Positions 16,523 to 53,716 of a DNA stretch of 53,845 nt are shown one piece after another; the first letter of the stretch is position 1, and the number at the start of each line of letters is the position of its first letter. Source of the stretch: a virus. The position numbers were made by a program, and so were the translations under genes. The notes under the pieces are model-generated. The model ran no database searches. It worked only from the letters and a program-made list of their open reading frames with translations, and was not told the DNA's origin. Where the stretch lies: positions 1-53,845 of IMG/VR virus record IMGVR_UViG_3300032288_000426; one strand, written 5' to 3'.

Positions 16523-16524
16523 GG

Positions 16525-17976
16525 TCACACCGCATAAGGGTTGGAGCGCTTGCGCTCGGCGTAGACGTAATCGTCATCGTCATCCTCGATTTTGGGATCT
16601 ATGTCAAGCCATCCCGCATCTCGCAAGTATCTCAGAGCCTGCGTGCAACTGTCCACGAAATCATCGTGTGTTGATTCGGGGAAAGAACAGATCTGGCTGA
16701 CAAACCCTTCAGCCCAATCCCTCACATAACCCTTACGTTGTGTGCTCTCAGGGATGTACACCCGCTTGTGCGCAATGATGTTCGCCACGATGGACAGCCG
16801 CTGGATCTTGTCTGCCTTGCCGGGGTTGTACGCACGCACTGGCAGGTGGGCACGCTGCAAGTCTTGGATCAGTGAGATGCCAGCCGCCTTATCTTCAATA
16901 AGAATAAGATCCACCTTTTTCCCGCCGGTAAAGTTTCCTCTGCCCTCTTCCTCGGGATCAGCGCCGTATGACACCTTGTACTCGTCAATAACCTTCGGAC
17001 GTAGATCCGGGTACTGAAGCCGATCCTGCCATGCATCGATGAGCATGACAGCCATGGGGCCGTCTTCGGGTTTAAACACTCCCCAAGTCGTTGCAGCCGT
17101 CGGGTCGTTGACAGTCTTTTCCGTGTACGCACAGTCATAGCTCTGTAGGATGAACTCAAACTTGGGGAAGGGTTTGTGTGGCGGCCACAGGCGGAACATC
17201 TCCCGCTTCACGATGCCGGACTCTTCAGGGTCGATCAGCTCGGCCTCGATCTCCTGCCTGCCCAGCCGGGTGCCCTCGTACTGCAGGATCTGCTTCTTGA
17301 AGTTGTCCGCCAGATTGTCGATGTTGGCATACGTCGAGGCGCGGGTGATCACCACATCGTCGCCCTCCCGGCCCACCAGCTCCACGATCAGATCCTTCGG
17401 CCTCGGGGTCGTGGTGCAGATCAGCCTGACCTTCTTACCCAGACGCAGGCCGAACTGCATCATGTCCCATGCGTCTTGTAGGTAATCCCATGCAGCCAGC
17501 TCGTCACACCAGCCACCATGGAACTGCGGGCCTCGGAAGCGCTCAGGCTCGGATGCCGGGATGCCCTTGATCAGGCTGCCGTTGATCAGCACAAGCTCAT
17601 GCAGCGCCTTGTTGTAGTCCTTGACCAGCATGTTGGGGATCACTGAGAGCAGGCCAGAGTCGCCCTCAAAGCAGGTGCCACGGACATCTGCCGAGGTCGG
17701 GGCGGCCACTACCCAGCGGGTGCCGGGGTTGCTCCATGCCCACCAGCCAAGCTCTTCAGCAGCCGTTCTGGTCTTGCCTGCGCCCCGGCCAGCCAGCATC
17801 AGCCATACGTCCCACCACTCACCGGGCGGGCGGACTTGATGATGGTGTGCTTTGGTAAGCCAAAGGGAGCGCCACTCAAAAGCAGCGCGGTAAGTAGCGG
17901 GCAGCTTGACGTATTGCTGGCGGAGCTCAGGATCCTTCAGGAGCTCAGCAACGTCGCCCATCAGGGGCTGCTCCAC
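16525..17976 (-). CDS. terL: Terminase large subunit
   Basis: A 483-aa protein with the full terminase architecture. Walker A is LAGRGAGKT (61-69), Walker B ends in GGWCDELAAW (D158 E159), and TTTP (188-191) is the coupling motif. The RNase H-like nuclease has acidic residues at D281 (SYDCAY), E361/D362 (LILIEDKAAG) and D438/D439 (HDDFVDS). It cuts concatemers and drives DNA into the head through the portal. The C-terminus has a poly-Asp run. It is encoded 3 genes after TerS, all overlapping. Confidence 0.95.
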   Translation of the reverse strand: MEQPLMGDVAELLKDPELRQQYVKLPATYRAAFEWRSLWLTKAHHHQVRPPGEWWDVWLMLAGRGAGKTRTAAEELGWWAWSNPGTRWVVAAPTSADVRGTCFEGDSGLLSVIPNMLVKDYNKALHELVLINGSLIKGIPASEPERFRGPQFHGGWCDELAAWDYLQDAWDMMQFGLRLGKKVRLICTTTPRPKDLIVELVGREGDDVVITRASTYANIDNLADNFKKQILQYEGTRLGRQEIEAELIDPEESGIVKREMFRLWPPHKPFPKFEFILQSYDCAYTEKTVNDPTAATTWGVFKPEDGPMAVMLIDAWQDRLQYPDLRPKVIDEYKVSYGADPEEEGRGNFTGGKKVDLILIEDKAAGISLIQDLQRAHLPVRAYNPGKADKIQRLSIVANIIAHKRVYIPESTQRKGYVRDWAEGFVSQICSFPESTHDDFVDSCTQALRYLRDAGWLDIDPKIEDDDDDYVYAERKRSNPYAV

Positions 17977-33174: not shown

Positions 33175-34641
33175 CTATTTGGGGCGTAATGCAGGTATCT
33201 TTTCGTACAGGTAATCCAAAGCCATTTGAGGGGCTACCTGCAACAATCCACCCGGTTGAGTTACTTGTCTAACGTCAGTCTTAGGCGCTGGCCCGATTGC
33301 AGCCTTTACACCCAACATAGGGATGGAACCCAAAATGCCCAAGCCCTTAACGCTTGCAGCCGTTGGGTTGGTAGGTGGAACCATCGCCATAGTGTTTAGT
33401 ACGGCAGAAACGCCATGTACAGCCGCCCCTAAAGGATCTTTGCCACTGGCACGGTCAAATGCCTCACTGATGTCATAAAAGGCACCAGCGCCCGAAAATA
33501 CGTTGCCAGCAAAGGGCAGAAAGCCTCTACCGCCCATGGCAATACCAAGGCGCTGCAGGTTGCTTATGTTGGCCTGCTGAGGGATGGTTACCCCACCCTT
33601 GAGTGTTCTTTGGGCTAAGCCCTCCATGCGGCGCAGCTCTTCCAGTCGCCGGGTAAAGGCAGAGACATCGCGCCCCATTGACTGCAACCGATTTATTTCA
33701 GCCTGCACAGTGGCTATTTGAGGCTGAATGATCTTCAGAGCATCCTTGGCTATCCTTACTTGCTCAGCAGCCACTGCAGCCTCCTGAGCCGCTACCTGAG
33801 CAGCTCTAGCAGATTCTTGAGCCGTAACAGTAGCAGCCGCCTCTGGAGGCAGCATCAACTGCCCACGGCCTTGACCGGCAAGCTGATACTGGCTACCACC
33901 CAACTGCTTAATTTTCTCAAGACGGGCTAAGTCCTGATTGATCAGCGCCTGACCACCTTTTGGGTTGGCCTTGGTCATGTCCTGCGCAGCCTCAAGGGTC
34001 ACATTTGGGAGCTGGTGCCCCTCACCTGCCATAGCACGCATCCAGTTAGACGCACCAGAGGCACCCTCAACTTTAGGGCCAGAGGCACGACCAGCCTGCG
34101 CCAGATCATCAAGGGCTGAAGGGAAGCCAGTCGATATTGGAGGCTCAGGCGGGATCATGTTACGGAACTGCGCAGCCTGCTGCTCTAATGCCGCCAGTTG
34201 TGCCTGCTTGCCAGAAATCTGCTGACCAGACAGGTTACGCGCCATTTCAATTAAAGTGGCCTCATCTTTGATCTTTGTTACGTCAATACCAGCCTCAAGC
34301 AGCGTATTCTTTAACGCCCTGCTGTAGATCTCTCTTTGCAAACTGTCTTTGGACAATAGATACTTTTCCAGAATGCCTTTGATGGCACCAGCAGTCCCAC
34401 CAATGACGGCAAAGTCGCTTGAAGGTCTTTGAGGTCTACCCTCCGTCGTTGTGGTTGCAACAGCCGCAGGCGGCTCTAAGGCAATTTTTTGAGCCTCAGT
34501 AAGAGGGACACCATCTTCTGTCGAAGCTTCAACAGGAGGCGCACTTTGGGCAGTATCTGATTGGTACTTCTTAACAACAGCCCAATCATCTTTGCTTGCT
34601 GGCTTTTGCTCTACAACTGCCCATTCATCTTTTTCAGCCAT
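33175..34641 (-). CDS. Internal virion/ejection-type protein with WAVV repeats
   Basis: A 488-aa protein. The N-terminus repeats KDEWAVVEQK and KDDWAVVKKY, a Pro/Thr-rich linker follows, then a helical core (coiled-coil region with EQVRIAKDALKIIQPQIATV). Gly/Ala-rich membrane-like segments lie near the end (GIAMGGRGFLPFAGNVFSGA). It is the last gene before the terminator. Size, order and composition match podovirus internal proteins ejected with the DNA. Function inferred. Confidence 0.65.
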   Translation of the reverse strand: MAEKDEWAVVEQKPASKDDWAVVKKYQSDTAQSAPPVEASTEDGVPLTEAQKIALEPPAAVATTTTEGRPQRPSSDFAVIGGTAGAIKGILEKYLLSKDSLQREIYSRALKNTLLEAGIDVTKIKDEATLIEMARNLSGQQISGKQAQLAALEQQAAQFRNMIPPEPPISTGFPSALDDLAQAGRASGPKVEGASGASNWMRAMAGEGHQLPNVTLEAAQDMTKANPKGGQALINQDLARLEKIKQLGGSQYQLAGQGRGQLMLPPEAAATVTAQESARAAQVAAQEAAVAAEQVRIAKDALKIIQPQIATVQAEINRLQSMGRDVSAFTRRLEELRRMEGLAQRTLKGGVTIPQQANISNLQRLGIAMGGRGFLPFAGNVFSGAGAFYDISEAFDRASGKDPLGAAVHGVSAVLNTMAMVPPTNPTAASVKGLGILGSIPMLGVKAAIGPAPKTDVRQVTQPGGLLQVAPQMALDYLYEKIPALRPK

Positions 34642-34649
34642 GGTTTCAC

Positions 34650-36962
34650 CTATTTAATTCTGATGGGCTTACCGCCTCTTAACGTCCACTCTTGACCATT
34701 TGCAAATCGAGTTACCTGCCCCTCAGCCAACTGTTTTAATGCTGCTGGAGGCAGTGTTGTTTGAGGCGTTGTTTGTGATTGTGTAGACACGCCACCCAAT
34801 AGCTTGGCGTTTGAGTCACGAATACGGTCAAGTTTATCCTCATAACCTTTCTTAATAGCCTTGTACTCATCACTGTGAGTAAAGTCTTCATAAGATCCAT
34901 TCGTCTTTTTCTTGTATTTGTAAAAGGCGTCACCAACCTTCTCAGTGACATTTGCACGCTCTTCAATCAATTCAGCCTTCAGGCGAACTGCCAGAGCACT
35001 ATCAGACGGCAAGACGTTGACCTGCTGGAACAGGCCAGTTTCTTTATCACTGATCGCGCCCTCACCACGAGACATACGACGCTCAAGAATAGTAAGCTGA
35101 GCAATGTTTCTCAAGAACAGGCTGTAAGCATCCCTGTCTGCCTTAGTAACCCCCGGCTTCTTGCTGGCAAAGTTATCAACAGCAACATACAGATCTTTGG
35201 GGTCAATGCTTACGCTACCCCAAGGCGTGATAATTCCAGACTGAATAGTCCGCGCCAAGGCATCTGATACAGTCGTATCCTGCATAACATCCAAGATCTT
35301 TGGATTGCTGGTTGCGATAGAGCGCAAGTCTTTGGCAATGATGCGTATGTTCTGGGCATTCGTGCCCTCTTTCATAATGTTGGTGCCAAGCTCAACATCA
35401 GCCTTTGTTTCTTCTTCAGACCGTTTTCTTGGGCCAGTTTCTTGGGTTATAACTTGTTGCTCTGCTTTTTGCTGTCTAAGGTTTCTTTCAAGCTCCTCTT
35501 CTTTCCGCTGTCTCTCAAGCTCTTCAGCGCTTAAAACGCGACCAGTTGGCACTCTTGCGGTTGTAGTTCGTGCGGCAGCCACGGAAGAATCTGCTTTGGG
35601 TTCTGCTGTAGTAACGGCTTTAGGGACTACCGCCTTATCAGCAGGGGCTTCAGCAGCAGGCTTCGGATTGGTCATCTCTGGGCTGTTGAATGTCGTGCCA
35701 ATAGTAGACTTGGGCACAACAACGCCACGGAACTGACTGCCGTTAAACCAGTGTTGCAACCTGTCAGGGCTTCCACTTCCCTTTGCATCCAGATAATCAC
35801 GATAATCAACAGGTGCCATCTCAAACGTACCAACGCCGTATTCAGGAATTTGTACTTTGATTGGTGTCTGCGTAAACCGTGCCTCATCCTTCTTCACTTT
35901 TATTTCAAGCTCAGACGGCGTCATAAAGCGCAGCCTCCCATCTGAACCAACAATTGTGTTTACAGGCATGTTGTTGGATTTATACACATCCAACAATTTA
36001 GCGAAGTCCCCAGACTTTTGCGCCTCATTAACTTCTTTCCAGAAGTTCATTGGCATTTTAATATTGCCAACGCCGGGCAAGTTACGCTCAACGCTTTGTT
36101 CTTTGGCCTCAACCTCGCGCTCTTTAAACCCACTTTCTTTTTTCTCAAGACTAAGCTTTGTTTCTTCACGAATGTCCTTACGCTGAGCAAGCTGCAGTTC
36201 TTGTAACCGCCTTTGCAGATCAACTTCTTTGATTTGAATATCTCGGTTCTCACGGAACGCCTTACGATACTCTTCAAGGATCTTGCCCATTGCTGGGTTG
36301 AATGTCTTGAGCATAGCGATCTGCTCATCAGTCATCCGGGCAATCTTGTTTCTTGGAACAGCAGGCAGCGCCAACTCAGGCATATCCAATGCCTTGGCTG
36401 CTTCAATAGTTTGTACTTCAGCTACCTTTGCTGCCTCAGCAGGCGCTTCAGCAGGAGCTGCGGCAGGAGCCTCAGCAGGAGCCGCAACATCAACCTTTGC
36501 AGGAGGTGGCGCAGCAGGAGGAGGAACAGGCGGAACCTCTGCCTTAGCAACCTTCGCAACCGGCGGAGCTTCAAGATCTTCAGCACCAAACATCTCGGCC
36601 ATCAACTGCTGACCCATCAATTCACGCTTCTGCTGTTGAGCACCAACCTCCAGCTCATACGCAAGCTTGGCCTCTTCCTGCTGACGGCGGAACTGCTTCT
36701 CTGCCTCAGCAGCATAATTGGACATGCCATAGCCAAGCGACTCCCCAAAACCACCTGTCTTTGTGGGGGCTAATAAACCAGCGGCCAATCCCATCATTGC
36801 AGGGTCGAATGGCATCTGTTGACGGGAAGAGATCAAGTCCATCAACCGTTTACGATGGGCGTCCAGAATCTGCTGGCTTTCTGCGGTCTGTGCTTGAAGC
36901 TTTTGCGCAAAACTGGCCGTCGGATTTATGGAGGACAAACCGCCCTTCTCAGTATCTGCCAT
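34650..36962 (-). CDS. Large internal virion-type protein with Pro/Ala-rich linkers
   Basis: A 770-aa protein. An N-terminal helical region (SFAQKLQAQTAESQQILDAH) precedes a linker with PPPAAPPPAKVDVAAPAEAP repeats, long Glu/Gln/Arg coiled coils (LQRRLQELQLAQRKDIREET; EERQRKEEELERNLRQQ-type) and a C-terminal globular part (FASKKPGVTKADRDAYSLFL). Very likely an ejected internal or tail-core protein. It begins MADTEKGGLSS, which includes a KGG motif. No enzymatic motif seen. Confidence 0.65.
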   Translation of the reverse strand: MADTEKGGLSSINPTASFAQKLQAQTAESQQILDAHRKRLMDLISSRQQMPFDPAMMGLAAGLLAPTKTGGFGESLGYGMSNYAAEAEKQFRRQQEEAKLAYELEVGAQQQKRELMGQQLMAEMFGAEDLEAPPVAKVAKAEVPPVPPPAAPPPAKVDVAAPAEAPAAAPAEAPAEAAKVAEVQTIEAAKALDMPELALPAVPRNKIARMTDEQIAMLKTFNPAMGKILEEYRKAFRENRDIQIKEVDLQRRLQELQLAQRKDIREETKLSLEKKESGFKEREVEAKEQSVERNLPGVGNIKMPMNFWKEVNEAQKSGDFAKLLDVYKSNNMPVNTIVGSDGRLRFMTPSELEIKVKKDEARFTQTPIKVQIPEYGVGTFEMAPVDYRDYLDAKGSGSPDRLQHWFNGSQFRGVVVPKSTIGTTFNSPEMTNPKPAAEAPADKAVVPKAVTTAEPKADSSVAAARTTTARVPTGRVLSAEELERQRKEEELERNLRQQKAEQQVITQETGPRKRSEEETKADVELGTNIMKEGTNAQNIRIIAKDLRSIATSNPKILDVMQDTTVSDALARTIQSGIITPWGSVSIDPKDLYVAVDNFASKKPGVTKADRDAYSLFLRNIAQLTILERRMSRGEGAISDKETGLFQQVNVLPSDSALAVRLKAELIEERANVTEKVGDAFYKYKKKTNGSYEDFTHSDEYKAIKKGYEDKLDRIRDSNAKLLGGVSTQSQTTPQTTLPPAALKQLAEGQVTRFANGQEWTLRGGKPIRIK

Positions 36963-36974
36963 ATCTAACCTCGT

Positions 36975-37856
36975 TTATTTACCCGTTGCAGGAACAACTG
37001 ACGAGCTTTGTGGGGTGCCCGTTATCGTGGTCGTAGCAGTCGGCTTACCAAAGCTACCAAGTGCTGCCAGCAGACCTGTAAGCTGCGCCAGAGGGCTTGT
37101 GCTGTAGCCTGTCGAACCCACAGTCTGTTTGGTCTCCCCGGTTGGGATCTGGTAGCCCTGCAGAAGCTTGGAGTACGCCTGAGCCGATGTCATTGGGTAA
37201 TCTAACATACGCTGCGCCAATGCCTGCTCAGTGCCTCCCAGCGTGCTTAGTGTGCCCAGACCTGTCGTTCCAGCCTGACTCTGCAATTGACCCAGTCCAC
37301 CTAGCACCTGACCAGACTGCAGGGCACGGGAAAGGTCTGTCTGAGCATTTGTTATGGCGTTTTGATAGCCAGTGCTCAACACACCCGCCTGCTTACCCAG
37401 TAAGTCAGCCTGCAGATCACGCAGGGTATTACCTGTCGCCTGATACTGTCGCTGAGATCCAAATTGACCCATGGCACCAGCAGCGCCCTTTAGGGATGGC
37501 AAAATGCTTTCCTGAATCTGCCGATTCTGCAGACGAGCCATTTCATCCACCACATTGGTGGTGTACGGATTCATGTATTGACCGACCATCTGAGGGGCTG
37601 TGGTAGCCCCAGCAGCCGTCGCCAGCTCAGCGCCAGTACCCATGGTGCCCATACCAGAGAAAGCCGCCGTAGGAGCCATGGCAAGCGCCTGCTGCTGCAG
37701 CGGAGACATCCCAGCCACACCACCCATCTGAACGCCTGCCTGACCAAGGTTGGCAATGTCCTGCAGATAATTGGTATAGAACTCAGGCGCAGTCTGCTGC
37801 GCTTGGGTGACGGTCGTTAACGCCGGTAGCGCTTCGCCTTGAAATAAATCAGCCAT
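36975..37856 (-). CDS. Internal virion-type protein, Gln/Ala/Gly-rich
   Basis: A 293-aa protein rich in Gln, Ala, Gly and Thr. MNPYTTNVVDEMARLQNRQI, then FGSQRQYQATGNTLRDLQAD and TGYQNAITNAQTDLSRALQS form helical repeats. The composition is similar to internal virion or ejection proteins of short-tailed phages that line the injection channel. Its start overlaps the previous gene by 8 bases. Confidence 0.65.
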   Translation of the reverse strand: MADLFQGEALPALTTVTQAQQTAPEFYTNYLQDIANLGQAGVQMGGVAGMSPLQQQALAMAPTAAFSGMGTMGTGAELATAAGATTAPQMVGQYMNPYTTNVVDEMARLQNRQIQESILPSLKGAAGAMGQFGSQRQYQATGNTLRDLQADLLGKQAGVLSTGYQNAITNAQTDLSRALQSGQVLGGLGQLQSQAGTTGLGTLSTLGGTEQALAQRMLDYPMTSAQAYSKLLQGYQIPTGETKQTVGSTGYSTSPLAQLTGLLAALGSFGKPTATTTITGTPQSSSVVPATGK

Positions 37857-39516
37857 TTTTCTTGCTCCTTGCTTGAGCCTGCTTCAGGTACTGTAAGGGT
37901 GATTTGGATGCCGGTGGAATTTTATTCACAGGCGCAGAACGCTTATGAGCGCGGATTTCTTCACGGAACTTGTCCAGCATGTCAGAACCCGCCTTTGAGG
38001 ATCCGTTGCCTAGCTGAGCTACAGTATCCGCATCAAAGACGTACTCACCATCGGCAAGCATGGCAGGGATGTCATCTGACTGACCATCGCCCGGCCCCAT
38101 AACACGAGAACCTGCACGGTAGTCATGACGGCCTTCAACGGTAGGCACATGCAGACCACCTTGAGCCATACCGCCGTTTGCCATACCACCATTTTGGGTG
38201 TTGCCCATCATCTGCATTGGGTCAACAACAGTACCGTAGGTGTAGAAGCTTGGCTCTTGAACTTGACCACCACCAGCCATCAAAGGCGTTGCCATACCAC
38301 CGTCTTTGTATCCACCTTGGTAATCTCCCCAATAGCTACTGGAAGTCCAATCAGGGGTATTGTAGTAAGAATTGCTGCCAGTGCCGCCGCTGAAGTTGTA
38401 TATTGGATCTGGGTCGGTATATGAATAATATGAACCACCAGAGTTATTGTTGTAGTCAGTCAAATAACTTGGCGTCGTTGATCCAGAATAATAAGAACCA
38501 CCGCCCGCCGGATTATTTATATTATCTAAATTATAGGGGCTGGTTGGGCTCCACCAAGGATCGTTACCACCAAATTCAAGATTATCTGAACCGGATCCAC
38601 CAGCAGAGCCTTCGCCGGTTGATGGGTTGTACACCAATCTCGTAGATCCATCAGGATTGATAGCGTAAGTATTCCCGTATTGCTGGTAATAAGTTTCACC
38701 CTGTGAGCCAGTAACTGGAACCCTCTCACCTTCTGCATTAGTTGTTGAAAGTGGCCTCTTTCTCAATGGTGCTGTTATTCCAGAAATAAGGCCGCCAATA
38801 TCTCCAATAGCGCTGCTACCAGCTCTTTTGGCAAGGTCATACAAGTTCCCTGCAGCTTTTGCGCCTGCAGCAGAAGCAGCAGATTCTGGCGTTATTAAAT
38901 AACCCAAAGCGCCACCCAATAAAGCACCAGTCAGAGGACTAATAGGCTCTGTTGAACGAGGTGTCACATTGATGGCTGGCATTAAGTTGCGGCCACTACC
39001 AACAGATGAAAAAGTCATTGGAGCGCGAGATGCTAAGGCAGGCATAGCAGAATACTGGCTCATTGGCATCAAAGAACCAAGACCACTCGGGGCACCAAAA
39101 GACCGCATCATCTCATCAGACATTGCAGGAACATCACGAACACCGTATTCCGAATAAGGCACAAACCTTGGCGCAGCAACCATAGTCTCTCTGCCGGGGA
39201 TGGCATACTGAGAGAAATCAGTTGGGCGGGCAACACCTTGTCCAGCCGTTGAGTTTTTCAAAAGCTCAGAAAACAGCGCACCAAGCGCAGCACCCTTTGC
39301 TGTACCTGTGCCCATAATGGCGCTTGCAATGTCTGTTAATGAACCTCCACCAGTAGCAGCATTTGCCAATGGAACAGTTGACGGATCATTCAAAGCTGAA
39401 TATTCAGTGCCAACACTGTCAATGCCACTGTAGTCAACCCCAGAAGTTGGAGCCGATGTTACCGTAGGTGCATTTGCGCCAAGGGTTGCATAGTCAGTTA
39501 CACTTGGGTCTGCCAT
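37849..39516 (-). CDS. Internal virion-type protein with GPGDGQSDDIPA module
   Basis: A 555-aa protein. Tyr/Asn/Ser-rich repeats fill about residues 290-390 (YYSGSTTPSYLTDYNNNSGG). A C-terminal module GPGDGQSDDIPAMLADGEYV (about 475-495), then LGNGSSKAGSDML, matches a pattern widespread in phage tape-measure and internal proteins. Nearby KDGGMATPLMAGGGQV and NGGMANGGMAQGG carry the GG motif. The C-terminus is a basic helix. Likely an internal ejection protein; function inferred. Confidence 0.7.
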   Translation of the reverse strand: MADPSVTDYATLGANAPTVTSAPTSGVDYSGIDSVGTEYSALNDPSTVPLANAATGGGSLTDIASAIMGTGTAKGAALGALFSELLKNSTAGQGVARPTDFSQYAIPGRETMVAAPRFVPYSEYGVRDVPAMSDEMMRSFGAPSGLGSLMPMSQYSAMPALASRAPMTFSSVGSGRNLMPAINVTPRSTEPISPLTGALLGGALGYLITPESAASAAGAKAAGNLYDLAKRAGSSAIGDIGGLISGITAPLRKRPLSTTNAEGERVPVTGSQGETYYQQYGNTYAINPDGSTRLVYNPSTGEGSAGGSGSDNLEFGGNDPWWSPTSPYNLDNINNPAGGGSYYSGSTTPSYLTDYNNNSGGSYYSYTDPDPIYNFSGGTGSNSYYNTPDWTSSSYWGDYQGGYKDGGMATPLMAGGGQVQEPSFYTYGTVVDPMQMMGNTQNGGMANGGMAQGGLHVPTVEGRHDYRAGSRVMGPGDGQSDDIPAMLADGEYVFDADTVAQLGNGSSKAGSDMLDKFREEIRAHKRSAPVNKIPPASKSPLQYLKQAQARSKKNG

Positions 39517-39518
39517 AA

Positions 39519-41324
39519 TTACCTCTGCTTTTTAAGCGTGATCAATCCGCCACGCGCAACTCTAAAAATATTTCCTGCTTGCGTTCTCAAAGCATATTCC
39601 TCTGGGGACATTAGCACTAATGATTGAGTATCCAATTCATTCAAAAGATTGGGTATCAATGAACCCATAAGGTTTGTTGGTTGTGGTGCATATCCAGTTC
39701 TTGAAAAGTTTGAGAACTGCAAACCACCTTGTGGCATAGGCGCACCGGGTCTTGGCATGGGGGCACCACTCATTGGTGGTTGCATAGACTGCGGCATAGC
39801 CACGTTATCAGTCAACACCCCCAATTTGCCTGTAGTTCCATCAATAGGATCAGAGATACCACCAGCGCCTTCAAACTGAGAGAGGTCACCAAGCCCTGCC
39901 TGCTGCAATCCAGACAATGTCAAAACATCAGAACCATATGCAGGCTGAGGCACACCAGTTGTTGCGGTGCCCGATGTAATAGCATTCAGAATACTTTGAT
40001 TGGTTTGCTCTATGGTTGGCGCAGCAGGCACAGGAACTTGAGTCACAGCCTCACCAGACGGAGGGACATCTCCAGCCAATGTTTGCTTTTCAGCGTCCGC
40101 AAGAACCTTTTGATCCAATTCTGCAGTAAGTTTTGCCTGCTCAGCAGCAGCAATGTTTTCTGGTGTTGGATTAAGTGATGCTTGAGCCTCAGCCTCTATG
40201 AATGCTGCATGTGATTGATCCGCTTGGGACATCAATCGGTTGAACATTCTCTTATCAAATGCTGGAGAGGTCTCACCAAGCTTTTCAACCATTGAAAAAT
40301 CATCTCCGCCCATCGGAGAAATTTTTCCAAATTCAGTTACGTCTTGGAGCGTCTTAAAATCGCCTGTAAGTGCAGCTTTTTTCAAAGCGTCATCAGTAAG
40401 ACTATCTCCAAAAACTTCAATTGGCTTTAATACGCCAGCAACATCTTCGGGGACATCATCAGTGATGGTTTCATAACCAGACGTTGTGGCTGGTTTGTAT
40501 CCGGGGATGTCGATATAGTCAGAAGCAGCCAAAGCAGAACCATACTGTTTGCCGTAGTATGGGTCTTTCTCCATCTGGTTTATCTGGGCAAGCTGTCCTT
40601 CCAATGACAAAGGAACTTCATCAACCAATTTATCTGAAACACCAGCGTAAGTTGGCGGATTGTCTTCTATACCCTCATCTCCCATGAAGGTTTTCTTTAT
40701 GTCCTGCAAACCTTCTTTAGCTTTTGCAGTTAAATCTTCCCATCCGCTTTCAACAAAAGCGTTTGCAAATCCAGTCGCAAAATCACCCCCTGTGGCAGTT
40801 GCGCCAACACCAGAAGCAACACCAGATTTCAGAGCTCCTTGAAGGCTTGCATGGCTTTCTGCAGACAAACCAAGGCTCTTAGATTGAGCAGCAACTTCTG
40901 GGGCAACATATTCATCGTAACCAGAGGCAGCCATTGATCCGGCAAAGGCACCAGCAGCAGCTTGTTGCCAATCACCGCCTGTAGCAGCAGTTAAACTGCC
41001 AGCGACCAAACTTTGGCTTGTTGCTGCCGTTAAGGCTTTTGCTGCCGCTTCATTTGTAACTGCGCTGCTAACTGCAGAACCTACCGCAGGAGCAATTTTT
41101 GCGGCTACATGTGGTGTAGCAACGGAAATAGCAGCAGCCTTTGCAATGTCTTCAAGGTCTCCGCCTCTAGCCGCCGCAATTGCAGATTGAGTTACATAAG
41201 CAGGAATTCCAACTGCCTGACCGGCAATGGTAAGAAGCGTCGGCAGGGGGTCATTGATGACCGCCTCTACCGTCTTAACAACGGTATCTACTACTTTCTC
41301 AACGGCTTTGACAACGACACTCAT
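39519..41324 (-). CDS. Large internal virion-type protein with Gly/Ala-rich amphipathic segments
   Basis: A 601-aa protein starting MSVVVKAVEKVVDTVVKTVE; AAGGGAG lies before this ATG at 41322-41324, and the longer frame to 41348 overlaps the upstream gene by 23 bases. Residues 1-200 are Ala/Gly/Val-rich and amphipathic (LLTIAGQAVGIPAYVTQSAI, GAFAGSMAASGYDEYVAPEV), suited to crossing membranes. A variable polar middle follows, and FRVARGGLITLKKQR ends it. It is the first large protein after the acyl cassette and a candidate substrate of it. Function inferred from composition and position. Confidence 0.65.
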   Translation of the reverse strand: MSVVVKAVEKVVDTVVKTVEAVINDPLPTLLTIAGQAVGIPAYVTQSAIAAARGGDLEDIAKAAAISVATPHVAAKIAPAVGSAVSSAVTNEAAAKALTAATSQSLVAGSLTAATGGDWQQAAAGAFAGSMAASGYDEYVAPEVAAQSKSLGLSAESHASLQGALKSGVASGVGATATGGDFATGFANAFVESGWEDLTAKAKEGLQDIKKTFMGDEGIEDNPPTYAGVSDKLVDEVPLSLEGQLAQINQMEKDPYYGKQYGSALAASDYIDIPGYKPATTSGYETITDDVPEDVAGVLKPIEVFGDSLTDDALKKAALTGDFKTLQDVTEFGKISPMGGDDFSMVEKLGETSPAFDKRMFNRLMSQADQSHAAFIEAEAQASLNPTPENIAAAEQAKLTAELDQKVLADAEKQTLAGDVPPSGEAVTQVPVPAAPTIEQTNQSILNAITSGTATTGVPQPAYGSDVLTLSGLQQAGLGDLSQFEGAGGISDPIDGTTGKLGVLTDNVAMPQSMQPPMSGAPMPRPGAPMPQGGLQFSNFSRTGYAPQPTNLMGSLIPNLLNELDTQSLVLMSPEEYALRTQAGNIFRVARGGLITLKKQR

Positions 41325-41325
41325 G

Positions 41326-41763
41326 TCATGTCTCCCTTGGCTCACCAAGTTGCAACGTGACAGAAATGCCGCCTTTTTCTTCCTTCACTGAATAACCCAT
41401 GCCGGGGAACGGTGGGTTACGGGAGATAGCCTTGAAGATGTTTAAGACTGTTGGGTTCTCAAAATGAGAATGCAAAACATCGTATCCGTATTGACGCGCA
41501 GCCTGAATGAACGCATAAGAGTTCTCAAGGTAGTTTCTTGCGGTATCAGCGTTGATGGCGCGGAAGAAACCTTCGCGTGGGCCTTTGTGATGGACAATGA
41601 ATAGTGTGTTTCCCTCTTTGAACAGGGTCACATTCTTTTCATTCAGTTCTGCAATAACGGCGGCATAAATATTTGCAGGCGGCAAATCTGAACCAGTTTC
41701 ATCAGCACCCAAGATGATGATTGGCTCAACTTCCAGCAAGTTTTTTTTGCTATCAACAAGCAT
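41326..41763 (-). CDS. Small alpha/beta protein, possibly GNAT-like acyltransferase
   Basis: A 145-aa protein: beta strand-rich N-terminus (NLLEVEPIIILGADETG), central NTLFIVHHKGPREGFFRAIN, helix (TARNYLENSYAFIQAARQYG), then NPTVLNIFKAISRNPPFPGM and a final strand pair. The order beta-helix-strand and the NIFKAI...GMGYSV segment recall GNAT acyltransferases, but no acyl-CoA pyrophosphate-loop motif is clear. It lies 9 bases after the ketoacyl synthase stop. I recall it as a recurrent phage virion-region protein. Acyltransfer is an inference. Confidence 0.55.
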   Translation of the reverse strand: MLVDSKKNLLEVEPIIILGADETGSDLPPANIYAAVIAELNEKNVTLFKEGNTLFIVHHKGPREGFFRAINADTARNYLENSYAFIQAARQYGYDVLHSHFENPTVLNIFKAISRNPPFPGMGYSVKEEKGGISVTLQLGEPRET

Positions 41764-41771
41764 CTCAATAC

Positions 41772-42881
41772 CTACAAAGGTTTGAAGATTGCTGCGCTGT
41801 AGACGTTTCCCATCCCCGCTGCAAGGCTCAGCACCGCGCCGGGTGGCGGGCTGATAGGTTCAGATAAAAATACTTCGTCACTTTCCGTCCGGTTCGGAAT
41901 CTCTGGAATAACGCCTGATCGCATGTCCTCCAAGAGCATCAAAGTTTCCAGAAGTCCACTCGCACCCATCGTATGACCGATTCTCTGCTTGTATGAAGTG
42001 GCAACAAAACTTTTAAGTGTAGATTGTAAAGCAGTTAACTCCGAAATGTTATTAGAAATTGTCCCTGTACCATGGGTTTTTACAATTCTGACATCATGCG
42101 GCTTGACTGCAGAAAACTCAAATGCGCCTTCAATGGCTTTAATAAAACCACTGCCATCTTCAAGTTGCCCAATGGCATTAGTGCTGGCCTCTGAGGCGGT
42201 ATAAGCCCCGCAGAACTCAGCAACCGGGGTATCCCCTGTCTTATTGACGGCAAGCCAATTGTCAAAGACGGCAAGGGCAGCCCCCTGTCCAACATAAAAG
42301 CCCCGGTTTTGCTTGTCAAAGGCACTTGGCTTAACGCCCGTCTTCTCTTCCTCAGCCGTCAAAACAGCCTTGGATTCACCGAAGAATTGCAGGACAGCGT
42401 TCGACACCCCATCCTCCACCGTCAGCACAATGACCCGCGCAAACCCATAGTGGCTCATCAACGTGTTCACATCCATCAGCACCTTCAGGCTTGATGCGCA
42501 GGCGCTGGAGTCAGTCACCACATGATCCTGTGCCCCACACTGCTGGGCTACCCTCCCGGCATAAACCTGCGTCAGGGTAAGTGGCAGGAACTTGTAGTCG
42601 TAACTTAACTGGCTATCGTACTTCCGCTGGTTGATTCCGGCAAAGTGGGCATTACCGCCCGCCAGAATAAAGGCCGTCTTGCCTACCTCCTGCTCCCTGA
42701 GTGTCTTCAGCAGGGCAGGATCCAGCACCTTCTCAGCCAGCTTATGAGGCGGGTACGTCAACCCCATCTTTACCTTGGCATAAGTCTCTGGGAACCAGTG
42801 AACCCGCTGCGGGTAAACTGCATCCTCCATCAACTCCACGTTACTGGTGGCCGCCGTCCTGTAATGAGTGAGATAGATCAT
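41772..42881 (-). CDS. Beta-ketoacyl-ACP synthase-like enzyme (KAS I/II type)
   Basis: A 369-aa thiolase-fold enzyme with the catalytic triad in order: Cys128 (DSSACASS), His270 (VKTHGTGT), His303 (GHTMGASG), and Lys298 before the second His as in KAS I/II. These residues bind the acyl chain and condense it with malonyl-ACP. The family's C-terminal Gly loop (GFGGTN) is changed to AGMGNV, and the protein is shorter than FabF (about 410 aa) because the N-terminal region is reduced. It is ATGA-coupled to the ACP gene. Host fatty-acid synthase proteins would supply substrates. Confidence 0.85.
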   Translation of the reverse strand: MIYLTHYRTAATSNVELMEDAVYPQRVHWFPETYAKVKMGLTYPPHKLAEKVLDPALLKTLREQEVGKTAFILAGGNAHFAGINQRKYDSQLSYDYKFLPLTLTQVYAGRVAQQCGAQDHVVTDSSACASSLKVLMDVNTLMSHYGFARVIVLTVEDGVSNAVLQFFGESKAVLTAEEEKTGVKPSAFDKQNRGFYVGQGAALAVFDNWLAVNKTGDTPVAEFCGAYTASEASTNAIGQLEDGSGFIKAIEGAFEFSAVKPHDVRIVKTHGTGTISNNISELTALQSTLKSFVATSYKQRIGHTMGASGLLETLMLLEDMRSGVIPEIPNRTESDEVFLSEPISPPPGAVLSLAAGMGNVYSAAIFKPL

Positions 42882-43162
42882 TTGATGGCCTCTATCGCCG
42901 CCTCTATGGACTCCGGCTCTTTTGTCTTGTGTTGCATCAAAAAGTCGTGGATCTCACGGATTGTCACAGGGACAAGCTCTTTCCCCTTGTCTTCAGGGAT
43001 TCCGTAGAGTTCACACATATACAAACCAATTAGCAAACTATCAAGACTGTCTACGTCTATGTCTTGAAGTTGATCATCCAGACTTTTTGCATTGTCAAAA
43101 TCTGGGGACATCGGTTTTGCGACTTTTGCTGTAGCGTTAAATAGTTTTATAAAGTCGATCAT
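42878..43162 (-). CDS. Acyl carrier protein-like
   Basis: A 94-aa protein (start MIDFIKLFNATAKVAKPMSP at 43162; the 108-aa frame adds an implausible Cys/Arg-rich end). DIDVDSLDSLLIGLYMCELY holds the phosphopantetheine site DSLD with Ser39, followed by helix II and the acidic ELYGIPE segment typical of ACPs. Helix I is short and the protein has a longer C-terminal helix (ESIEAAIEAIK). A host phosphopantetheinyl transferase would activate it. ATGA-coupled to the ketoacyl synthase. Confidence 0.8.
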   Translation of the reverse strand: MIDFIKLFNATAKVAKPMSPDFDNAKSLDDQLQDIDVDSLDSLLIGLYMCELYGIPEDKGKELVPVTIREIHDFLMQHKTKEPESIEAAIEAIK

Positions 43163-43164
43163 TG

Positions 43165-43410
43165 TTATCTTGGTTGAACGGCTCCTACAACAGCCTGTGC
43201 CCAATCCTGCCAGTCATTAAAGACGGCTGGCCCCGGTATACCTTCATTGGTGAAAACGTCAATGGCCTTCAAACCCTCGCCCCATTGACGCCAATCTGTG
43301 CCCTGCATAGGTATTGCCAACTGCTGTGTTGCGTACAACTCACACATCAAAGATGCCCACGACTCAAATGTATGCCCCCTCGGATCATAAATAAGCGATA
43401 CGTCAGACAT
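43165..43410 (-). CDS. Small Trp-rich protein upstream of the ACP gene
   Basis: An 81-aa protein starting MSDVSLIYDPRGHTFESWAS (ATG at 43408-43410; TGATG overlap with the hub gene). Six Trp residues, helical, with DWRQWGEGLKAIDVFTNEGI. Two bases separate it from the ACP start, so it belongs to the same transcript and could be part of the acyl cassette or a tail assembly factor. No family recognised. Confidence 0.65.
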   Translation of the reverse strand: MSDVSLIYDPRGHTFESWASLMCELYATQQLAIPMQGTDWRQWGEGLKAIDVFTNEGIPGPAVFNDWQDWAQAVVGAVQPR

Positions 43411-45215
43411 CAATAACCCCTTACGTCGCCAACATTGGCTGACAGCAATAACCGTCCAAGCTGGTAATTACCGTTGACGGTATTTGACACAAACTTCAGT
43501 CTACATTCACGGCGCTGTTCACGCATGTCAATTTTTCCAGTTGTGGGAGAAAAGACATAAGCCGCAGAGGTTTGATCCTCTTCCTGCGCATAGGGGCGGC
43601 CAGTGACGTAGAGCTCCATGTTCCCAGATTGCAGGAAATCAGGTTCTACACGCTCCAGATGCAGCCAGAAGTTATCCCCAGCGAGTGACGGCTGTGCTGG
43701 GCCGCCACCAACCCAACCAAGGTCTGAGGTCTCAAAGTAGCTCTCAATGGCGCTGACTTGGATCCCCTTAATCTCATCCGTGCCAAACTCATGCTGCCAC
43801 AGGGAAACAAAGCTCATGACATATGTAAGCGTGATCTTAAAGTTGGATCCGCCGCCCGGCAGGGCATACGTCAATTCATCGCCAACCGTATAGTTAATGC
43901 CATTGGCCGTAATAACGACATCCGTTACTATGCCGCCAGCTACGGTAATCGTGGCCTGAGCGCCAGTTCCAGTGCCGCCAGTCATGGCAACGTCAGTGTA
44001 GGTGCCGTCCGTATAGCCAGAGCCAGCCGTCAACGTAAACAGGTTTGCGCCACCCGTAGCATTGATGGTTGTCCCGGCATTTACAGGGAAGGGGAAAACC
44101 TGCGAGAAGAACCCAGCCGACCGTCGGGCACCAAGTGCCTGACCAGCGTCATACCAAGTCTGCTCACGGATGTTATAAACAATCGCATCATTGCACTCAA
44201 CAGAGTCGCCGCGAGGGTAGAACCACCAGATCTCGCCATACCGAGGAACCTTGGACACATAGACCTTCTGGCGCTGCGCATAGTTCAGATTGTCAAAGAA
44301 CCAGTTCTGGTTCATGTTGTTCGGGATCTCTTTGACAACACCGTTGTACATCAGGAAGCGGTCAACGCCACACCAATAATAAACACCGTCGTATTCGATA
44401 ACCGACTGCGCAGACAAGATTGATGACTGGCTGGAAACAATGTCATACCGCCAAAACAAGGTTGTGGTTGTGACGCCATTGGAAATGGTGGTCGGGTTGT
44501 ACGAAACCCGGATCAGGGAGTCCAAAGACCAAAAGAGGCCGGATGGTGAGTTGGAACCACCTCGCACTGGCAAGCCCTGAACGATCTTTGTACCCGCCAC
44601 GTTTGTCTCGTTGGCGTCAGCCCCACTCCAATCCGTGGGATCCCCGGCAGCGCAGTTCTTGATCAGGCCATTATTGCCGTAAACAAAAAGGTAGGGGTGC
44701 AAGACTACGCATCCACCGCTGACCTCAACAGGGCTCGCCCCATCCATAACGGCGGTCATGCTTGTGCCTGTAACATCACCAATCAAGACTGGCGTATTGA
44801 CGGTGTTTGAAATATCACTGAGGTTTTGTCCCGGATGGGCAACTAATGACTCTTGACCGCCGCCAGTGGTGTCGTAGAGCGTGTCAAACTGCCAAAGGTT
44901 ATCAACATCTGGGGTAAAGTCAGTCAGGGTGAAATTACTTACCCCAGATCCAATGCCGTTGTTATCAATAGGGATGACCTGCAAGCCATCAGAATACCCG
45001 TTGAAAACATAGTTGAAGTTGTCTTGGACGTTGATGTAAATGCCCCGAGATGGCCCAGCCATATCCCCAACAATCTGGCGATAGCCAAGCATCTTTCTTG
45101 GGCGGCCACGCTGAAAGCGAACCCAACGGCCATCGTTATAGAACATCTTGTCCAGAACAGTGCCGTCCCGCTGAACTCCGGGCTTTGTATCTGGGCTAAA
45201 TACCTTCTTGGTCAT
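43410..45215 (-). CDS. Tail hub/needle protein resembling P22 gp10 (DNA stabilisation) with inserted beta domain
   Basis: A 601-aa protein. The N-terminal 370 residues have a beta-propeller-like pattern (YDGVYYWCGVDRFLMYNGVV, YGEIWWFYPRGDSVECNDAI), close to P22 gp10, which closes the portal and holds the tail spikes. Residues about 378-466 (GSGYTDGTYTDVAMTGGTGT) are an inserted Gly/Thr beta module found in many phage structural proteins. The C-terminal part continues the hub. It is ATGA-coupled to the gene at 45212. Confidence 0.75.
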   Translation of the reverse strand: MTKKVFSPDTKPGVQRDGTVLDKMFYNDGRWVRFQRGRPRKMLGYRQIVGDMAGPSRGIYINVQDNFNYVFNGYSDGLQVIPIDNNGIGSGVSNFTLTDFTPDVDNLWQFDTLYDTTGGGQESLVAHPGQNLSDISNTVNTPVLIGDVTGTSMTAVMDGASPVEVSGGCVVLHPYLFVYGNNGLIKNCAAGDPTDWSGADANETNVAGTKIVQGLPVRGGSNSPSGLFWSLDSLIRVSYNPTTISNGVTTTTLFWRYDIVSSQSSILSAQSVIEYDGVYYWCGVDRFLMYNGVVKEIPNNMNQNWFFDNLNYAQRQKVYVSKVPRYGEIWWFYPRGDSVECNDAIVYNIREQTWYDAGQALGARRSAGFFSQVFPFPVNAGTTINATGGANLFTLTAGSGYTDGTYTDVAMTGGTGTGAQATITVAGGIVTDVVITANGINYTVGDELTYALPGGGSNFKITLTYVMSFVSLWQHEFGTDEIKGIQVSAIESYFETSDLGWVGGGPAQPSLAGDNFWLHLERVEPDFLQSGNMELYVTGRPYAQEEDQTSAAYVFSPTTGKIDMREQRRECRLKFVSNTVNGNYQLGRLLLSANVGDVRGY

Positions 45216-52589: not shown

Positions 52590-52952
52590 TTAGCGGAAGA
52601 TCGAGACATTACAGTACAACGGATCAACGCCAGCGCCGCCGTCAGTTACTAAAAATCTTACTGAAGTTGTGGTGTACGACCGAGGAGAAAACCCTCGTTC
52701 TGTGTTACCCGCGACAATAGCGTCACTTAAAGTACAAGTCCCATTCGCAGCATAGTTCGCATCCGTCAGCGCATTCGTAAAGTTGACCGTATAGTCCCCA
52801 GTACCGTTATCCGTAATACTCGACACATTAAACGATGCGCGAATAGCGACAGTGCCGGTTCCGTTGAAGTTGACCCAAGCTTTTGCCAAGCCATCAATCG
52901 TCGGTTGCCCGCCTGATGGATTCGTTACTGTAGTGACTCGTAGTGTGCTCAT
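52590..52952 (-). CDS. Tandem fibre-module paralogue 3
   Basis: A 120-aa protein starting MSTLRVTTVTNPSGGQPTID (ATGA overlap at 52949 fixes this start over a longer frame). Shares KAWVNFNGTGTVAIRAS and ITDNGTGDYTVNFT with the next two genes; the C-terminal half is unique (TERGFSPRSYTTTSVRFLVT). A small fibre or receptor-binding module. Confidence 0.75.
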   Translation of the reverse strand: MSTLRVTTVTNPSGGQPTIDGLAKAWVNFNGTGTVAIRASFNVSSITDNGTGDYTVNFTNALTDANYAANGTCTLSDAIVAGNTERGFSPRSYTTTSVRFLVTDGGAGVDPLYCNVSIFR

Positions 52953-53332
52953 CGGAATACCCCAACGCAAACTGTATCAACGTCAGATACTCCAGCAGTT
53001 TGTGTAATAAATGAATTTATCCTGCACGACCCCGCTGCAAATCTTGTACCCGCGCCGGGATTATTGAAACCATAACTACCAAAAGAATTACCACTACCTG
53101 AACTTCCCATAATAGAATAATTTGCATCCGCAAACGCAGTCGTAAAGTTCAATGTGTAATCACCTGTACCGTTATCCGTAATCGAACTCACATTAAAACT
53201 CGCCCGGATAGCCACTGTGCCCGTACCGTTAAAGTTTACCCATGCCTTGGCACTACCGTTAATCACGGTCTCAGACGGAACCGATGAGGAACCTGTCTGG
53301 TTGGATATGGTGGTTAGTCTTAGTGTGCTCAT
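52949..53332 (-). CDS. Tandem fibre-module paralogue 2
   Basis: A 127-aa protein with the conserved KAWVNFNGTGTVAIRAS and ITDNGTGDYTLNFT base. The distal half is different from its neighbours (SFGSYGFNNPGAGTRFAAGS). The second of three tandem copies. Confidence 0.75.
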   Translation of the reverse strand: MSTLRLTTISNQTGSSSVPSETVINGSAKAWVNFNGTGTVAIRASFNVSSITDNGTGDYTLNFTTAFADANYSIMGSSGSGNSFGSYGFNNPGAGTRFAAGSCRINSFITQTAGVSDVDTVCVGVFR

Positions 53333-53335
53333 GGT

Positions 53336-53716
53336 TTAACGGAAGACTGAAACATAATACGATGCTGGGTCATAAAAATTTGCCGCACCTTGAATATCTG
53401 TCCAGCAGACTCTAATTTGAGTTGTAGATTGCGTAGTTGGTGTCCCAACAGACGCGCTGCCATAAATTCTTGCAACAACAGAACCATTTGACGTTGTATA
53501 CATTGGGGCAGATACATTTACGCAATAATTTGCATCCACCATAGCCACCGTAAAGTTCACCGTGTAGTCGCCTGTACCGTTATCCGTAATGCTTGATACG
53601 TTCCCTGAAGCTCTGATCGCAACCGTACCTGTGCCATTAAAATTAACCCAAGCCTTCGCCGTGTAGACCTCTACACCAGCCTGAGTTGCAATAGTCGTGA
53701 CTCGTATGGTGCTCAT
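53336..53716 (-). CDS. Tandem fibre-module paralogue 1
   Basis: A 126-aa protein with KAWVNFNGTGTVAIRAS, ITDNGTGDYTVNFT, then a distinct distal part (MYTTSNGSVVARIYGSASVG). It is ATGA-coupled to the fibre gene that ends at 53713. The first of three tandem copies. Confidence 0.75.
   Translation of the reverse strand: MSTIRVTTIATQAGVEVYTAKAWVNFNGTGTVAIRASGNVSSITDNGTGDYTVNFTVAMVDANYCVNVSAPMYTTSNGSVVARIYGSASVGTPTTQSTTQIRVCWTDIQGAANFYDPASYYVSVFR

What the first reader, a model, noticed from the sequence alone, without database searches (positions are those of the whole stretch)
41326..43162. Phage-encoded acyl cassette: ACP, ketoacyl synthase and a possible GNAT-like partner in the virion operon
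Seen: an ACP-like gene (DSLD, Ser39), a ketoacyl synthase with Cys128-His270-His303, and a 145-aa alpha/beta protein, all close-packed between the tail hub gene and the internal virion proteins. Known: ACP and KAS proteins build acyl chains; toxin-activating acyltransferases of the HlyC type have a GNAT-like fold and take acyl groups from ACP. Inference: the phage may make or elongate an acyl group and attach it to an internal/ejection protein (for example at 33175-41324) to help it cross the host membrane. If so, this would be an acylation system for virion proteins.
Basis: partly seen in the sequence, partly recalled or inferred. Interest (0 to 1): 0.9.

Follow-up and report, generated by a model that had tools for sequence, protein, structure and literature searches.

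The report
Phage cassette for acylating an ejection protein
A family of uncultured aquatic phages carries its own acyl carrier protein, fatty-acid-type condensing enzyme and small acyltransferase-fold protein, which come and go together with an unusual N-terminus on the neighbouring DNA-ejection-operon protein, suggesting that the phage attaches a fatty-acid-like group to a protein it injects into its host.

Summary
On the minus strand, ACP (42878-43162), ketoacyl synthase (41772-42881) and a 145-aa protein (P145, 41326-41763) are intact, under purifying selection and conserved in well over 100 viral contigs. ACP Ser39 is invariant (81/81); KS Cys128/Lys298/His270/His303 are invariant but for one contig. 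P145 folds as a GNAT (pLDDT 92; all 50 top PDB hits GNATs) but lacks the CoA-binding loop in 55/55 sequences, as HlyC-type, ACP-using acyltransferases do.

Where P145 is present, the next gene starts M-[S/G/A]-[A/G]-V-[V/A]..., then a Val-rich amphipathic stretch (107/109 distinct; 0/29 in cassette-free sisters). In one 59-kb relative ACP-KS sits elsewhere, yet all are kept. One lineage lost KS but kept ACP, P145 and motif.

Best explanation (inferred): P145 transfers an acyl group from phage ACP to the N-terminus of the adjacent ejection-operon protein; KS tailors the chain. Acylation itself is untested, and independent gains/losses are few (1-2), so common descent explains much of the co-occurrence.

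The parts
42878..43162 (-). Acyl carrier protein (94 aa), D38-S39-L40-D41 phosphopantetheine site
   Evidence: S39, D38, D41 invariant in 81/81 homologues; profile hits solved ACPs; PP-binding in 17/52 members; AlphaFold pLDDT 95.4
41772..42881 (-). Ketoacyl synthase, FabF-like (369 aa), Cys128-Lys298-His270-His303; overlaps ACP by 4 bp
   Evidence: Pfam 6e-16/6.5e-9, PDB FabF 6.8e-22, phrog_35856 9e-42; C128 81/82, H270/H303/K298 81/81
41326..41763 (-). 145-aa GNAT-fold protein (P145), candidate ACP-dependent acyltransferase; no CoA pyrophosphate loop
   Evidence: AlphaFold pLDDT 91.9, pTM 0.86, topology a1a2-b2b3b4-a3-b5-a4-b6b7; Foldseek top 50 all GNATs, prob 0.99-1.00; [QR]xxGx[GA] absent from the b4-a3 loop in 55/55
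39519..41324 (-). 601-aa protein, N-terminus MSVVVKAVEKVVDTVVKTV...; candidate acyl acceptor and ejection/internal virion protein
   Evidence: N-terminal motif in 107/109 distinct proteins next to P145, 0/29 in cassette-free loci; N-terminal domain profile hits only cassette loci
43165..43413 (-). 82-aa protein (P82), conserved left border of the cassette, also present in cassette-free sister phages
   Evidence: P82 profile hits RLK gp067c at 1.6e-16; 39/82 KS loci; P82 abuts the internal gene in cassette-free loci
43410..45215 (-). Tail gene (P22 gp10-like stabilisation protein by homology to MW202545 and RLK gp068c): upstream flank
   Evidence: phrog_3287 virion structural protein 1.3e-26; 44% to RLK gp068c; annotated in MW202545
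37849..39516 (-). 555-aa protein whose C-terminus is homologous to the internal gene that directly follows P82 in cassette-free phages (INT1)
   Evidence: 48% over 86 aa to RLK gp066c; INT1 profile
33175..37856 (-). Downstream internal/ejection operon genes (36975-37856, 34650-36962, 33175-34641)
   Evidence: Synteny and similarity with RLK gp065c and with operons that carry an SLT transglycosylase in MW202545, RLK and G012

Best explanation
The three genes plus the N-terminal domain of the next gene product form a phage protein-acylation module. Host enzymes would convert the phage ACP to holo-ACP and load it; the phage KS would extend or tailor the acyl chain; P145, a GNAT-fold enzyme without a CoA-binding loop, would transfer the acyl group from phage ACP to the adjacent ejection-operon protein, most likely on its N-terminal Ser/Gly/Ala after removal of Met. 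The lipidated, Val-rich amphipathic N-terminus would then insert into a host membrane during DNA ejection. Shown: gene identity, conserved catalytic residues, GNAT fold, missing CoA loop, purifying selection, all-or-none presence, exclusive N-terminal motif. Inferred: ACP as donor, the acceptor and acceptor site, the role in ejection.
For: Catalytic residues kept across the family. P145 GNAT model and PDB matches, including N-alpha-acetyltransferases (RimI 5isv, Ard1 4pv6) and the acyl-ACP-using AHL synthase TofI. CoA loop missing in 55/55, the feature reported to distinguish ACP-using ApxIC from other GNATs (PMC8339906). All-or-none cassette at the P82|internal-gene border: 30 loci without, 5 with all three, 1 with KS deleted; long cassette-free records lack all three. 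In G012 ACP-KS is relocated to the replication block, yet P145 and the MGAVAEVV protein stay in the virion operon. N-terminal motif 107/109 vs 0/29; it also holds in the 38 genes whose start does not overlap P145, so the overlap does not create it. The only two exceptions (near-identical contigs L140/L141) have P145 altered at otherwise conserved R68, A69 and M122 and no adjacent ACP-KS. Lineage L230/L157 lost KS but keeps ACP, P145 and motif.
Against: No direct evidence of acylation. Only 1-2 changes of cassette state on the adaptor tree, so co-occurrence is largely one inherited block. Small residues after Met are common in proteins generally, and the conserved N-terminus may serve membrane insertion unmodified. 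In 23 KS loci ACP-KS lies among replication-type genes, without P145 in the fragment. P145 has no recognised catalytic dyad: H58 and D95 are conserved but unproven, and D95 is K in G012. KS is dispensable in one lineage. The virion location of the acceptor is by synteny, not proteomics.
Confidence: 0.5

Rival explanations
1. Small-molecule route: P145 is an N-acyl amino acid or AHL-type synthase (FeeM- or LuxI-like) that uses phage acyl-ACP, and the product acts on host membranes or signalling.
For: FeeM-type N-acyl amino acid synthases use acyl-ACP (PMC8762209); AHL synthase TofI is among the GNAT fold matches; ACP-KS can sit among replication genes.
Against: P145 stays beside the acceptor-type gene in the virion operon even when ACP-KS has moved, and the motif on that neighbour is exclusive to cassette phages. 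P145 is smaller than AHL synthases and hits no such family.
Confidence: 0.17
2. ACP-KS is an auxiliary metabolic pair that boosts or changes host fatty-acid synthesis, and P145 is an unrelated virion assembly factor or acetyl-CoA-dependent acetyltransferase (analogous in place to the small T7 gene between nozzle and ejection genes).
For: ACP-KS is a separate 2-gene unit in 23 loci; lone phage ACPs are known and read as metabolic genes (PMC5463345, PMC11705849).
Against: P145 is not a general assembly gene: sister phages with the same operon lack it. 16 of 17 long P145 records also have ACP and KS. No CoA loop in P145.
Confidence: 0.2
3. P145 acylates an internal lysine of the ejection protein or another virion protein, HlyC-fashion, rather than the N-terminus.
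For: HlyC/CdiC-type enzymes acylate internal Lys from acyl-ACP (PMC8510554, PMC8339906).
Against: No conserved Lys was seen in the conserved N-terminal segment, which is Lys-poor (K+R 4%), while residue 2 is Ser/Gly/Ala/Thr in 108/109.
Confidence: 0.1
4. The block is a hitch-hiking insertion whose parts are linked only by descent, with no joint function.
For: 1-2 state changes on the tree.
Against: Strong purifying selection, relocation without loss, and KS loss that spared ACP, P145 and motif.
Confidence: 0.05

Closest known systems
Toxin-activating acyltransferases (HlyC, CyaC, ApxIC) and CdiC
   Same: GNAT fold lacking CoA-binding elements; acyl-ACP as donor (inferred here); gene next to its protein substrate; lipid aids membrane interaction (PMC8339906, PMC8510554)
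   Different: No HlyC Pfam hit, no HlyC-type structure in the top 50 matches; those enzymes acylate internal Lys and use host ACP; here the phage brings ACP and KS and the candidate site is the N-terminus
FeeM-type N-acyl amino acid synthases
   Same: Enzyme that uses acyl-ACP as donor (PMC8762209); a GNAT-like fold and a dedicated ACP are recalled, not tested
   Different: They make small molecules; P145 is shorter, lacks family hits and lies beside a virion-operon gene with a co-occurring N-terminal motif
FabF (KAS II) and AcpP of type II fatty acid synthesis
   Same: Cys-His-His-Lys active site, DSLD site
   Different: KS scores 105 bits against a FabF equivalog cut-off of 494, is about 58% or more identical only within phages, and has N278 where FabF has Asp (Asp position from general knowledge)
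Phage ACP and fab genes reported as auxiliary metabolic genes (vB_EliS-R6L, R22Y, Rhodobacteraceae prophages)
   Same: ACP, or fabG-acpP-fabF, in phage or prophage sequence
   Different: No GNAT partner, virion-operon site or acceptor motif described in the passages read
Sister phages without the cassette (Caulobacter phages RLK, RW, KcrB, GB2A)
   Same: TerL 45%; in RLK also adaptor, stabilisation protein, P82 and internal operon
   Different: RLK has no ACP, KS, P145 or Val-rich N-terminus

Membership tests
Acyl carrier protein (PP-binding) | DSL motif Ser at the start of helix II | tested here: met
   S39 invariant 81/81; helix 39-52
Acyl carrier protein (PP-binding) | Sequence profile match to known ACPs | tested here: met
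   Family profile vs PDB ACPs E 4e-4; 17/52 members hit PF00550; the window protein alone does not
Acyl carrier protein (PP-binding) | 4'-phosphopantetheine attached | not testable with these tools
   Needs mass spectrometry
Beta-ketoacyl synthase (thiolase fold, KAS I/II) | Cys-His-His-Lys active site | tested here: met
   C128 81/82, H270, H303, K298 81/81
Beta-ketoacyl synthase (thiolase fold, KAS I/II) | Pfam domains PF00109 and PF02801 above cut-off | tested here: met
   36.2 and 59 bits vs 20.8
FabF equivalog TIGR03150 | Score above curated cut-off | tested here: not met
   105 vs 493.75 bits
GNAT superfamily (fold) | Fold and strand/helix order | tested here: met
   Model topology; top 50 PDB hits all GNATs, best TM about 0.59
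GNAT superfamily (CoA-dependent) | [QR]xxGx[GA] pyrophosphate loop between b4 and a3 | tested here: not met
   Absent at that site in 55/55 sequences
HlyC-type toxin-activating acyltransferase | Match to the HlyC Pfam family | tested here: not met
   No HlyC hit for P145 or 36 homologues
HlyC-type toxin-activating acyltransferase | His/Asp catalytic dyad | tested here: inconclusive
   H58 (53/55) and D95 (54/55) conserved, but geometry not tested and D95 is K in G012
HlyC-type toxin-activating acyltransferase | Acyl-ACP donor and acylated protein acceptor | not testable with these tools
   Needs biochemistry

The most novel reading that the evidence does not exclude
A virus-encoded, self-contained protein-lipidation pathway (own ACP, own chain-tailoring KS, own ACP-dependent N-acyltransferase) that lipidates the N-terminus of a DNA-ejection protein so that it can enter the bacterial membrane: a bacteriophage counterpart of the myristoylated entry proteins of some animal viruses.
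Probability: 0.4. Interest if true: 0.93.

Novelty: new variant of a known kind. Interest (0 to 1): 0.8.

Why it matters
Phage ACPs have been reported repeatedly with function unclear (PMC5463345). Here an ACP is tied by gene content to a GNAT-fold enzyme and to a specific candidate acceptor, which makes its role directly testable. If right, it would be a phage-encoded acylation pathway acting on an ejection protein, would bear on how short-tailed phages get proteins and DNA through bacterial membranes, and would give a compact ACP-dependent N-acyltransferase with its own carrier.

Tried and rejected
Single-sequence family searches for the ACP and P145 found nothing useful (a Glyco_transf_4 hit at 0.0054 for P145 is below cut-off and not shared by most of the family). 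The idea that P145 is a general assembly gene was rejected because sister phages lack it. The idea that the trio is an inseparable operon was rejected: ACP-KS is elsewhere in G012 and in 23 KS loci lies in another context without P145 beside it. The idea that Ser at position 2 only reflects the ATGA start/stop overlap was rejected: 38/38 non-overlapping genes also have Ser/Gly/Ala. A bacterial origin or host was sought: the genome scan gave one close match, in a Balneolaceae MAG contig that carries the same trio and is probably phage sequence, and otherwise KSs at about 33% identity or less, so the host is unknown. Literature searches for acylated phage ejection proteins found none in the open-access library.

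Full report
What is there. The window is a 53,845-base IMG/VR virus record. On the minus strand the order is: tail stabilisation protein (45215-43410), P82 (43413-43165), ACP (43162-42878), KS (42881-41772), P145 (41763-41326), a 601-aa protein (41324-39519), then further internal genes. ACP and KS overlap by 4 bp.

Identity of the parts. The KS has both ketoacyl-synthase Pfam domains and is closest to FabF among solved structures, but far below the FabF equivalog cut-off. Its Cys128, His270, His303 and Lys298 are conserved in all but one homologue (L079, Cys to Arg). The ACP is too divergent for single-sequence searches, but the family profile finds solved ACPs, a third of members hit PP-binding, and the model is an ACP-like helical bundle with Ser39 at the start of helix II. 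P145 gives a confident model with the GNAT order of elements; every one of the 50 best PDB matches is a GNAT, TM-scores up to about 0.59. In none of 55 sequences does the b4-a3 loop carry the CoA pyrophosphate motif; the position instead has an invariant N71-A-D73...N77 stretch.

Distribution. A viral-contig scan with the KS gave 110 relatives (80 kept). In these plus the window and MW202545, ACP adjoins KS in 81 of 82 loci. P145 follows in 55; 3 of the other 27 end at the contig edge, 1 has an unrelated neighbour, and 23 have ACP-KS followed by a ~100-aa helix-turn-helix-like gene and mostly a DUF3310-like gene. A P145 scan gave 312 relatives, nearly all of those kept with P82-ACP-KS-P145. 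Of 17 long records chosen by P145, 16 have KS and ACP; the exception is a 36.8-kb fragment. In the 59-kb record G012, ACP-KS lies on the other strand next to helicase-type genes while P145 and the MGAVAEVV protein are in the virion operon.

Phages without the cassette. The nearest isolates, Caulobacter phages RLK, RW, KcrB and GB2A (TerL 45%), are represented by RLK, which has the same stabilisation protein, P82 and internal genes, but P82 abuts the internal gene and no ACP, KS or P145 is found in the whole 62-kb record. Scanning with the adaptor protein as a neutral anchor gave 36 loci spanning the site: 30 with P82 followed by the internal gene and none of the three, 5 with all three genes, 1 (L230) with a KS deletion scar. 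L157 carries the same scar. Six further long records (47.9-58.7 kb) lack all three genes everywhere.

The candidate acceptor. The gene after P145 begins M-[S/G/A/T]-[A/G/V/F]-V-[V/A]-x-x-[V/I], then Val-rich amphipathic repeats and a conserved hydrophobic DPLPTLL-type segment, in 107 of 109 distinct cases. In 29 distinct cassette-free loci the protein after P82 starts quite differently, and a profile of the N-terminal domain hits only the 6 adaptor-anchored loci with P145. The motif is also present where start and stop codons do not overlap. The two exceptions, L140 and L141, are near-identical contigs whose P145 has lost R68-A69 and M122 and which have no adjacent ACP-KS.

Mechanism. The parts fit ACP-dependent protein acylation: a carrier, a chain-tailoring condensing enzyme, an acyltransferase fold without CoA elements (the feature said to explain why ApxIC uses acyl-ACP, PMC8339906), and a neighbouring protein whose mature N-terminus would be Ser, Gly or Ala after Met removal. 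In HlyC and CdiC systems the lipid promotes membrane or LPS interaction (PMC8510554). Podovirus ejection proteins must insert into host membranes (PMC8954989), and the operon encodes an SLT transglycosylase in MW202545, RLK and G012. The donor, acceptor and role are inferred. That KS can be lost while ACP, P145 and motif persist suggests that ACP-P145-acceptor is the core and KS tunes the acyl chain.

Limits. The adaptor tree needs only 1-2 changes of cassette state, so co-occurrence is mostly inheritance of one block. The informative exceptions are few: the G012 relocation, KS loss in L230/L157, and divergence in L140/L141. No proteomics of this clade was found, morphology is inferred from adaptor and gp10-like genes, and the host is unknown.

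Verdict.

Noticed in passing
window 12335-16528 (-): 1397-aa protein between terminase and portal, no Pfam hit; residues 975-1169 match an endolysin-labelled PHROG (phrog_7348, 4.8e-17), possibly a packaged polyprotein.
   Followed up: partly
window 43410-45215 (-), residues about 380-465: The tail stabilisation protein carries a Gly/Thr-rich stretch matching baseplate wedge and tail fibre PHROGs, not evident in RLK gp068c: looks like an inserted decoration domain.
   Followed up: no
window 52590-53716 (-): Three tandem paralogous ~126-aa proteins share AKAWVNFNGTGTVAIRAS-NVSSITDNGTGDYT: a recent duplication of a tail-associated gene.
   Followed up: no
L085 13319-13615, L067 and 22 other KS loci: ACP-KS in a second context, followed by a ~100-aa HTH/sigma-region-4-like protein (PRLSDEDPDPLEQDD...WRYHF) and mostly a DUF3310-like gene.
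   Followed up: partly
L230 near 13991-13997; L157 5406-5446: Shared KS deletion scar (short MIKTHGA... remnant) with ACP and P145 intact.
   Followed up: yes
L079 5720-6829: The only KS homologue with the active-site Cys changed (Arg); true variant or sequencing error.
   Followed up: no
L244 (Balneolaceae MAG contig, 37.6 kb): Carries the ACP-KS-P145 trio and an MSAVV-type next gene; probably a phage contig binned into a bacterial genome, or a prophage.
   Followed up: partly
BFVD hits: Several 125-166-aa uncharacterised phage proteins share the P145 fold (TM 0.65-0.75) at 12-18% identity; whether they sit beside ACP genes is unknown.
   Followed up: no
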